Positions 10,546 to 50,520 of a DNA stretch of 64,000 nt are shown here, in pieces. Both the position numbers and the translations under genes were made by a program. The DNA lies in the NCBI GenBank assembly GCA_937139495.1, contig CAKZQC010000019.1, positions 1-64,000 on the forward strand. The letters run 5' to 3'. Position 1 is the stretch's first letter, and the number at the start of each line of letters is the position of its first letter. The notes beneath the pieces are model-generated. The model did not search any database. It had not been told where the DNA came from and saw only the letters and a program-made list of their open reading frames with translations. This DNA comes from an uncultured Saprospiraceae bacterium. Lineage in GTDB: Bacteria > Bacteroidota > Bacteroidia > Chitinophagales > Saprospiraceae.

Positions 10546-10626
10546 CGAAGAAAAGACCTGTTTACCTGTCATTTTTATGTCAGTTCACTTCTTGTTCTAG
10601 CTTATTTATATTTATTCTAATCAATA

Positions 10627-10850
10627 GAGGTTGTTACGAATAGATTCGTATGGCAAGAAAAATATCTTTTCCCGATTCCTTTCATAAATGCTCGACTTCA
10701 TAGCTAAGGCTATGTAATCCACGAGTGGCACTCTTCGCTAGGTGTTCTCTGAACATCTACCCTTTGGGTTCGCTCGTGCGTGTGCGTTTATTTCATGAAT
10801 CAAAAAAATCTATCTTCTTGACCTCATACAACTCCATTCGCAATAAGCTC
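10627..10850 (-). repeat. MITE-like element, copy A, with four-hairpin core
   Basis: A 224-base non-coding element filling most of the hemA upstream gap. Its ends are imperfect inverted repeats of about 40 bases (outer text GAGGTTGTTACGAATAGA on the left; GAGCTTATTGCGAATGGA read inward from the right on the other strand). TA borders both ends. The core carries hairpins at 10699-10714, 10719-10728, 10740-10758 and 10759-10769. Read on the minus strand, these are in the same order, and nearly the same spacing, as those of the element at 35276-35519. No open reading frame is evident. Confidence 0.7.
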
Positions 10851-10867
10851 TAACTGCTTTGTTTTTG

Positions 10868-34390: not shown

Positions 34391-35275
34391 GTGGCTTCTT
34401 CAATAGATAAACCAACTGTTTATACGCACAAAAAAGCACTTATTGAACTGCACTTAGCAGCGATATTATTTGGAGGTGCAGGCTTGTTTGCCGAATTTAT
34501 TACGATTAGTGCAGGCGGAATCGTGCTGGGGCGGGCTTTGATAGCAGCGGTGTTTATAGCTGTCGTACATTTTCTTGTGCGACCTATTTTGGTATTGCCC
34601 AAAAGCAAAAAAGACCGTATTCAATTTGTAGTACTTGGATTTATTTTAGCCTTGCATTGGGTTAGTTTTTTTGTTTGCATACAAATGACGACCGTGGCGA
34701 TTGGCGTGTTGACTTTTTCGAGTTTTCCAATATTTACGATACTGTTGGTCGCTCTGATGAACAAACGATTGCCTAGCAATACCAATATATTGCTGTCCTT
34801 GGTTGCGTTGTTTGGGATTGGGCTGCTGCTCAATCCTACAGAACTACAAACGTCTAATGTAGTCGGTGTTTTGGTCGGTATTTTTTCGGGTTTTACCTGT
34901 GCGATACTGACGATTTATAGTCAACGCCTACTAGAAAATTATAGTGGTGTACAAGTCGCTTTTTACCAAAATGGCATTGCTGCCTTATTCCTTGTTCCTT
35001 TTTATAGCTACGATATTATTGCGAATACGACTGGGGTCGAATACCTTTATTTCTTATTTTTAGGAATTGCCCTGACGGCTATAGCACATACATTGTTTAT
35101 CAATAGTATGGAGCGAGTTAGTCCTCAAACGGCTAGTTTAGTAGCGAGTTTGGAGCCTGTTTATGGCATTGTACTAGCGTGGTTGCTACTGCATCAAGTG
35201 CCAACTTGGTCAGTCGTGATTGGTGGCGTATTAATATTAGGTGTTGCTTTTGTGGCATCTATGCCTAGAGAATAA
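34391..35275 (+). CDS. EamA/DMT-family transporter
   Basis: A 294-residue inner-membrane protein with about ten membrane segments in two EamA halves (about 15-145 and 158-290). The typical ends ALHWVSFFVCIQMTTVAIGVLTFSSFPIFT and LFINSMERVSPQTASLVASLEPVYGIVLAWLLLHQ are present. It probably exports or exchanges a small metabolite; the substrate cannot be told. It starts with GTG at 34391. Its TAA stop codon coincides with the target site of the MITE-like element that follows directly. Confidence 0.85.
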   Translation: MASSIDKPTVYTHKKALIELHLAAILFGGAGLFAEFITISAGGIVLGRALIAAVFIAVVHFLVRPILVLPKSKKDRIQFVVLGFILALHWVSFFVCIQMTTVAIGVLTFSSFPIFTILLVALMNKRLPSNTNILLSLVALFGIGLLLNPTELQTSNVVGVLVGIFSGFTCAILTIYSQRLLENYSGVQVAFYQNGIAALFLVPFYSYDIIANTTGVEYLYFLFLGIALTAIAHTLFINSMERVSPQTASLVASLEPVYGIVLAWLLLHQVPTWSVVIGGVLILGVAFVASMPRE

Positions 35276-35519
35276 GAGCATGTTTGAAATTATAGTTTTT
35301 GATGATTTGTGTCCCGACGTTCGTTGGGATCCGTGATAGGATTTTTCTGTTAGATGAATACAACTAACCCTTTAGGGTAAGTATCCTGTGGATACTTAGT
35401 GGAATGGACCACTAGTGGGCTTTTTTTACTTCATAGCCTTAGCTATGGAGTAAAAAAAGGTGAAATATAAGAGGAAAAGACATTTCAAATTGCAAATTAG
35501 TATAATTTTAAACATGCTC
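35276..35519 (+). repeat. MITE-like element, copy B, with hairpin array
   Basis: A 244-base element with 19-base terminal inverted repeats (GAGCATGTTTGAAATTATA, one mismatch between ends) and a TAA direct repeat outside each end (35273-35275, 35520-35522). Inside lie hairpins at 35312-35329, 35367-35378, 35379-35397, 35409-35418 and 35432-35447; the last extends into a stem of about 16 bases (35422-35457) with T and A tracts. TNA duplications and GAGC ends suggest mobilisation by an IS5/IS1031-type transposase. No coding frame is present. Confidence 0.8.
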
Positions 35520-35577
35520 TAAATACATTTTCGTATTTTGAGCCTATTCGTCCAATCGTCGAAAACAACATTAAGCT

Positions 35578-50358: not shown

Positions 50359-50398
50359 AAAAAGACAAAAAAATCGGCAGCAAAAATTAATTCGTTGC
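50359..50398. repeat. Partial copy of the 47201 terminator
   Basis: This stretch repeats the left arm, loop and start of the right arm of the symporter terminator (ATCGGCAGC, AATTAATTCGTTGC) but lacks the closing CGATTTTT arm. The copy stops where the MITE-like fragment begins. Confidence 0.6.
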
Positions 50399-50482
50399 AT
50401 TCATCTAACAGAAAAATCCTATCAGGAATCCCAACAAACGTCGGGACATAAATTATCAAAAACTATAATTTCAGATATGCTC
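50399..50482 (-). repeat. MITE-like element, truncated copy C
   Basis: On the minus strand it starts GAGCATATCTGAAATTATAG and follows the left part of the element at 35276 for about 84 bases, including the TCCCGAC / GTTGGGA hairpin, then stops after GTTAGATGAAT. TTA borders the outer end. The hairpin array and the second end are missing. Confidence 0.7.
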
Positions 50483-50520
50483 TTAGTGAATATAGTACGA
50501 AAAAACATATTTTTCGCCTA

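What the first reader, a model, noticed from the sequence alone, without database searches (positions are those of the whole stretch)
10627..10850. Covarying four-hairpin array shared by two non-coding elements
The element at 10627-10850 (read on the minus strand) and the one at 35276-35519 both contain, in the same order, hairpins ACCC..GGGT, an 8-base stem with 3-base loop, CCACNNGTGG and CATAGC..GCTATG. The first two touch each other in both copies, and the gap between the second and third is exactly 11 bases in both. The second hairpin has a different sequence (AAGTATCC/GGATACTT against AGATGTTC/GAACACCT) but keeps its pairing, apart from one mismatch. Conserved shape with changed sequence implies selection on an RNA or single-stranded DNA structure, not just a relic.
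Basis: partly seen in the sequence, partly recalled or inferred. Interest (0 to 1): 0.62.

Follow-up and report, generated by a model that had tools for sequence, protein, structure and literature searches.

The report
Saprospiraceae three-hairpin passenger DNA repeat
The two structures are copies of a roughly 60-base, three-hairpin DNA repeat scattered through about half of sampled genomes of one bacterial family, riding inside unrelated small transposons; its shape is kept while its letters change, which suggests the shape is what lets it spread.

Summary
Both window elements are MITEs with unrelated ends: family A at 35276-35519 (TIR GAGCATG.., TSD TAA) and family B at 10626-10851, minus strand (TIR AGAGGTTRTTACG..). 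Each has a hairpin-4 tip. In long forms a module of three hairpins sits beside the tip; short forms lack it. A covariance model of hairpins 1-3 finds the module at least 20 times in this genome (at least four host elements) and in 54 of 120 sampled Saprospiraceae genomes; outside the family it is nearly absent. Across 122 distinct copies, 98% of pair cells are paired, 15 of 16 pairs show changes on both sides, and only 1.3% are G-T. So the structure is real and selected, or otherwise maintained, between lineages. But copies sharing a host element decay mostly one-sidedly (48 one-sided against 3 two-sided differences), and family-A stems change nearly as fast as the rest of the element. Best reading: a REP-like, non-autonomous passenger module recognised as a DNA structure. 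No helper enzyme was found. Hairpin 4 is a separate palindrome.

The parts
35276..35519 (+). MITE of family A, long form: TIR GAGCATGTTTGAAATTATA../..TATAATTTTAAACATGCTC; 3-bp TSD TAA at 35273-35275 and 35520-35522
   Evidence: about 60 full or partial matches in the genome; TWA duplications read in several copies
35361..35420 (+). three-hairpin module (A type): hp1 35367-35378, hp2 35379-35397, 11-base linker, hp3 35409-35418
   Evidence: R2 46.6 bits
35432..35447 (+). hairpin 4, CATAGC CTTA GCTATG, tip of the host palindrome; also present in module-less short forms; not part of the module
10626..10851 (-). MITE of family B, long form: TIR AGAGGTTRTTACGAAT../..ATTCGYAATAASCTCT; 3-bp TSD AWT in most copies, imperfect here (AAT/AAC)
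10717..10775 (-). three-hairpin module (B type): hp1 10769-10759, hp2 10758-10740 (one A-C mismatch), 11-base linker, hp3 10728-10719
   Evidence: R2 66.7 bits
10699..10714 (-). hairpin 4 of family B, identical 16-mer CATAGCCTTAGCTATG
50391..50485 (-). partial family-A element (left 95 bases, no module)
   Evidence: L012
25875..25910 (-). fragment of a family-A terminal repeat

Best explanation
The shared array is a non-autonomous, REP-like dispersed DNA module of Saprospiraceae, about 60-75 bp: GAGCGAACGA - hp1 (often TCCC-nnn-GGG) - hp2 (GAATGTCC-nnn-GGACATTC) - AAGTGAGTGAA - hp3 (CCGC-nnn-GCGG) - ATGGG. It carries the tag TGAGYGAAC twice, each copy followed by a short hairpin, with a perfect 8-9 bp hairpin between them. 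SHOWN: it is dispersed, it covaries, it sits inside unrelated host repeats (MITE families A, B, C and D here; other repeats, an IS3-like element and an IS66-like locus elsewhere), it forms tandem arrays, and individual copies decay after amplification. INFERRED: the hairpins act as DNA, probably while single-stranded, as the recognition structure of an unidentified mobilising enzyme, so only lineages with an intact fold spread. Host MITEs, moved by transposases acting on their own TIRs, carry the module along. Module-less short forms arise when the palindromic tip is re-templated and the module is skipped.
For: R2 model: 54 of 120 family genomes and 52 of 112 genera, up to 29 matches in a genome. 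122 distinct rows: 98.0% paired, 352 two-sided changes against 75 by shuffling, 44 further pair types, covariation 0.542 against at most 0.109 when slid. G-T only 25 of 1904 cells. In unbiased family-A copies T-G (10) and C-A/A-C (6) occur in similar numbers, so there is little sign of G-U tolerance. Host-sharing pairs: 48 one-sided against 3 two-sided. A stems 6.6% changed against 7.9% outside, 0 compensated. Four host elements in one genome. Tandem arrays with 67-308 bp period. Neighbouring genes are unrelated housekeeping genes. Short forms of A and B amplify without the module, so it is a passenger.
Against: No helper enzyme: Y1 transposase is absent from this genome and from seven of nine genus genomes. 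No clean empty/filled site pair was found outside the MITEs, so independent transposition of the module is not shown; spread could be wholly by host elements plus recombination. In B and in another genome (G134) stems are more conserved than flanks (2.7% against 7.2%; 1.2% against 5.2%), which hints at some constraint on resident copies, though G134 copies were picked by the model. The alignment was fitted to the structure.
Confidence: 0.55

Rival explanations
1. A structured RNA element (regulatory RNA, RNA stabiliser or small RNA) selected for its RNA fold, either for the cell or for the host transposons.
For: Strand-asymmetric conserved single-stranded linkers (GAACGA, AAGTGAGTGAACC) and strong covariation; stems more conserved than flanks in G134.
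Against: G-T only 1.3% of pairs; no Rfam match (no relevant match); positions next to unrelated genes; most copies that share a host decay one-sidedly; one of the three 'hairpins' here has a 2-base loop.
Confidence: 0.2
2. The covariation is mutational, not selective: arms of short palindromes are re-templated on each other during replication (quasi-palindrome correction), which makes two-sided changes in one step.
For: Nearly all changes between lineages are two-sided and Watson-Crick. In L147, two tandem repeats with closely similar flanks differ by compensated pair changes in hp1 and hp2 and by none one-sided. Short forms of A and B look re-templated at the tip.
Against: Closely related copies accumulate one-sided changes (48 against 3), so correction is slow. 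It does not explain why the linkers, order and spacing are kept over 52 genera.
Confidence: 0.15
3. Two MITE families that simply share a piece by recombination; ordinary MITE structure with no separate module.
For: Both are TIR-bounded MITEs with TSD and share the 16-mer hairpin 4.
Against: Hairpins 1-3 recur in host elements with unrelated ends, in arrays and at an IS3-like orfA/orfB junction in other genera, and the A and B modules differ in sequence but not in fold.
Confidence: 0.05

Closest known systems
Tagged REP elements (GTAG and CGTC families, Di Nocera et al. 2013, PMC3733652) and REP/RAYT pairs (Nunvar et al. 2010, PMC2817692)
   Same: short palindromic, mostly intergenic, dispersed and clustered; unpaired conserved tag beside a hairpin; thought to be non-autonomous mobile DNA
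   Different: tag is TGAGYGAAC, present twice, not GTAG or CGTC; three hairpins in about 60 bp instead of one in 20-40 bp; no Y1/RAYT gene in this genome
MITEs of the IS5 type (TNA target duplication; family assignment from own knowledge)
   Same: family A host element has TIR and TWA duplication, no coding capacity
   Different: the module has no TIR or TSD of its own and sits inside several MITE families; no matching transposase found
Mobile palindromic GC clusters and double-hairpin elements of mitochondrial DNA (Wu and Hao 2015, PMC4478555; details of double-hairpin elements from own knowledge)
   Same: short mobile palindromes that diversify quickly, merge and shuffle
   Different: bacterial, three hairpins in fixed order, carried in MITEs
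Rickettsia palindromic elements (mentioned in PMC3733652)
   Same: short dispersed palindromes, occasionally inside genes
   Different: here mostly intergenic; few in-gene cases; no sequence relation tested

Membership tests
MITE (host elements A and B) | terminal inverted repeats | tested here: met
MITE (host elements A and B) | target-site duplication | tested here: met
   A: TAA/TAA here and TWA in other copies; B: AWT in most copies, imperfect at the window copy
MITE (host elements A and B) | mobilising transposase with the same ends in the genome | tested here: inconclusive
   no TIR pair enclosing a transposase and no matching TIR beside the three DDE_Tnp_1 hits; draft genome in 50 contigs
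Tagged REP (GTAG/CGTC) | terminal unpaired GTAG or CGTC tag | tested here: not met
   conserved unpaired sequence is TGAGYGAAC / AAGTGAGTGAAC
Tagged REP (GTAG/CGTC) | RAYT / Y1 transposase associated | tested here: not met
   PF01797 in 2 of 9 genus genomes, none in this one
Tagged REP (GTAG/CGTC) | dispersed, largely intergenic, clustered copies | tested here: met
Known structured RNA family (Rfam 15) | match to a curated covariance model | tested here: not met
   one search gave only sub-threshold chance matches
Functional RNA in general | G-U pairs tolerated in covarying stems | tested here: not met
   25 of 1904 cells
Functional RNA in general | transcript | not testable with these tools
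   no RNA-seq available

The most novel reading that the evidence does not exclude
The module is an independently mobile bacterial element, spread as a folded single-stranded DNA by an undescribed enzyme. It parasitises many unrelated transposons and swaps hairpin sequences while keeping the fold, like a bacterial counterpart of the mobile palindromes of mitochondria.
Probability: 0.25. Interest if true: 0.78.

Novelty: new variant of a known kind. Interest (0 to 1): 0.5.

Why it matters
A family-wide, structure-defined repeat with compensatory change in three adjacent hairpins, hardly any G-T pairs, decay within amplified lines and no recognisable transposase is a clean natural test of whether DNA hairpins, rather than RNA, are what selection sees in bacterial palindromic repeats. 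It also suggests that transposons in one bacterial family share a common passenger. I found no description of it in the held literature, which covers open-licence papers only, and no Rfam family.

Tried and rejected
Rfam at gathering and permissive thresholds: nothing relevant. REP/RAYT: no Y1 transposase. Autonomous IS with matching ends: none at single TIR sites or beside the DDE_Tnp_1 hits. Integron attC arrays were considered because copies cluster; dropped because copies are mostly single, in MITEs, and the conserved boundaries do not look like attC (no integrase search was run). Interrupted or bypassed reading frames: few cases, 26 listings from 131 contexts with both flanks open for 50 codons, so not a general property. 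Helper gene by neighbourhood: 53 neighbouring proteins show no shared family that points to a helper. Plasmids, phages and viral contigs: no match. The three weak hits outside the family look doubtful by eye, except perhaps G476.

Full report
CHECK. A: ACCC-TTTA-GGGT / AAGTATCC-TGT-GGATACTT / 11 bases / CCAC-TA-GTGG / CATAGC-CTTA-GCTATG. B: ACCC-AAA-GGGT / AGATGTTC-AGA-GAACACCT / 11 bases / CCAC-TC-GTGG / the same fourth hairpin. The elements fold at z -9.1 and -7.0 against shuffles. Part of that comes from their long terminal inverted repeats.

HOSTS. The window lies in an Aureispira-like genome of Saprospiraceae: the same-genus genome G007 appears to be a record titled 'uncultured Aureispira', judged by a contig of the same number and length. 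Element A (35276-35519) is bounded by GAGCATG.. inverted repeats and a TAA duplication, and has about 60 full or partial matches in the genome. Element B (10626-10851) has unrelated ends AGAGGTTRTTACGAAT and AWT duplications in most copies. Both occur as short forms, in which hairpin 4 is the tip of an almost pure palindrome, and as long forms with hairpins 1-3 on the 5' side of hairpin 4. In short forms the bases that replace the module are the complement of the opposite arm (for B, GACT against AGTC), as expected if the tip was re-templated and the module skipped; this is inference. A third host type (L254, TIR AAAGGTTATGTAGGTAGA) and a fourth (L255, no hairpin 4) carry their own versions of the module in the same genome.

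FAMILY. A covariance model from A and B copies found the module in five other genus genomes and some family genomes. A second model from diverse copies found it in 54 of 120 family genomes, 52 of 112 genera, with up to 29 matches in a genome, but in only 7 of 395 genomes across the phylum: four family genomes including this one, and three weak hits outside. Two of those three look doubtful by eye, G476 less so. One exact variant gave 23 stretches in named genomes, all titled Saprospiraceae, Saprospirales, Aureispira or Bacteroidetes. It was not found in plasmid, phage or viral collections. The consensus is GAGCGAACGA-TCCCnnnGGG(T)-GAATGTCCnnnGGACATTC-AAGTGAGTGAA-CCGCnnnGCGG-ATGGG. The tag TGAGYGAAC appears twice, each time before a short hairpin (direct reading).

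COVARIATION. On 122 distinct rows, 98.0% of 1904 cells pair. Fifteen of 16 pairs have two-sided changes, 352 cells carry them (shuffled mean 75), and the score is 0.542 against at most 0.109 when the 3' partners are slid. That alignment was fitted to the model, so the earlier MAFFT alignment of 12 sequences is a useful second view: 97.4% paired, 28 two-sided cells, no one-sided ones, 0.445 against at most 0.089 slid. G-T makes up only 25 of 1904 cells, whereas RNA families usually carry clearly more G-U (own knowledge).

DECAY. Family-A long copies were gathered by flank similarity, so they are not biased towards intact stems. Their stems change at 6.6%, linkers 4.9%, the rest of the element 7.9%, with no compensated pair. 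T-G and C-A/A-C mismatches are 10 and 6. In B and in G134 stems change less than flanks (2.7% against 7.2%; 1.2% against 5.2%), so some constraint or ascertainment bias remains. Over 59 pairs of copies sharing flanks, 48 pair changes are one-sided and 3 two-sided. Structure is thus kept between lineages, less so within an amplified line. That is what a recognition structure for spreading would give.

AN ODD CASE. In L147 two tandem 308-bp repeats (flanks 7.1% different, fewer differences near the module) differ by paired substitutions in hp1 (ATTGGGC/GCCCAAT against GTTTAGC/GCTAAAC) and one in hp2, and by no one-sided stem change. This suggests that stems can be exchanged or re-templated in one step, and is the main support for the mutational rival.

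CONTEXT. Most copies are intergenic beside unrelated housekeeping genes. Notable exceptions are an IS3-like element in G121 (assignment by reading the protein, own knowledge) with the module between orfA and orfB just after an A-AAA-AAG slippery string, in two copies, and a copy upstream of IS66-like genes in G092. Tandem arrays occur with periods of 67 to 308 bp.

MECHANISM. Best supported: a passenger module carried by MITEs and other repeats, with its fold recognised as DNA by an unknown enzyme. Shown: dispersal, covariation, host diversity, decay. Inferred: DNA rather than RNA, enzyme recognition, and own mobility. No helper was found: no Y1 transposase here, no TIR-matched transposase, no shared neighbour family that points to one.

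HAIRPIN 4. The TAGCC..GCTA palindrome lies within 80 bases 3' of 18 of 137 module contexts, about 1 expected from mononucleotide shuffles, but half of these are the A and B families and some contexts are listed twice under different loci. It is a separate recurrent palindrome, not a module part.

COMPARISON. It works like a tagged REP or a mobile mitochondrial palindrome, but it fails two of the REP membership features tested here (tag and Y1/RAYT; PMC3733652, PMC2817692). The hosts are ordinary MITEs. I rate it a new variant of a known kind.

Noticed in passing
L147 (family genome locus), 1501-1570 and 1809-1878: Two tandem 308-bp repeats with nearly identical flanks near the module differ by compensated pair changes in hairpin 1 and hairpin 2 and by no one-sided stem change; stems seem to be exchanged or re-templated in one step.
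   Followed up: partly
L176 and L183 (G121), about 501-560: The module sits between orfA and orfB of an IS3-like element, directly after an A-AAA-AAG string, in two copies; one of 16 stem pairs and no unpaired position of the module differ while flanks differ by 12%.
   Followed up: partly
window 35312-35340, and L006, L007, L012, L022, L025, L027, L029, L030, L043: A second small palindrome (CCCGACGTTCGTTGGGA and variants) is nested in the left arm or in the hairpin-4 loop of several family-A copies.
   Followed up: no
window 10699-10714 and 35432-35447: Hairpin 4 (TAGCC..GCTA type) is identical in two MITE families with unrelated ends and recurs near modules in other genera; it varies with compensation in older family-B copies (CGTAGC/GCTACG in L053, L054, L057).
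   Followed up: partly
L272 (G110:C61), 1-800: Array of four 168-bp repeats each with a module; the next repeat unit lacks it and continues with the reverse complement of the right flank, as after a template switch at the palindrome.
   Followed up: no
L118 (G007:C198), 2218-2278: A module lies within a stretch where both flanks are open reading frames (85 and 212 codons) and reads through as ...DERPIPKGECLGDIQVSEPRQR....
   Followed up: partly
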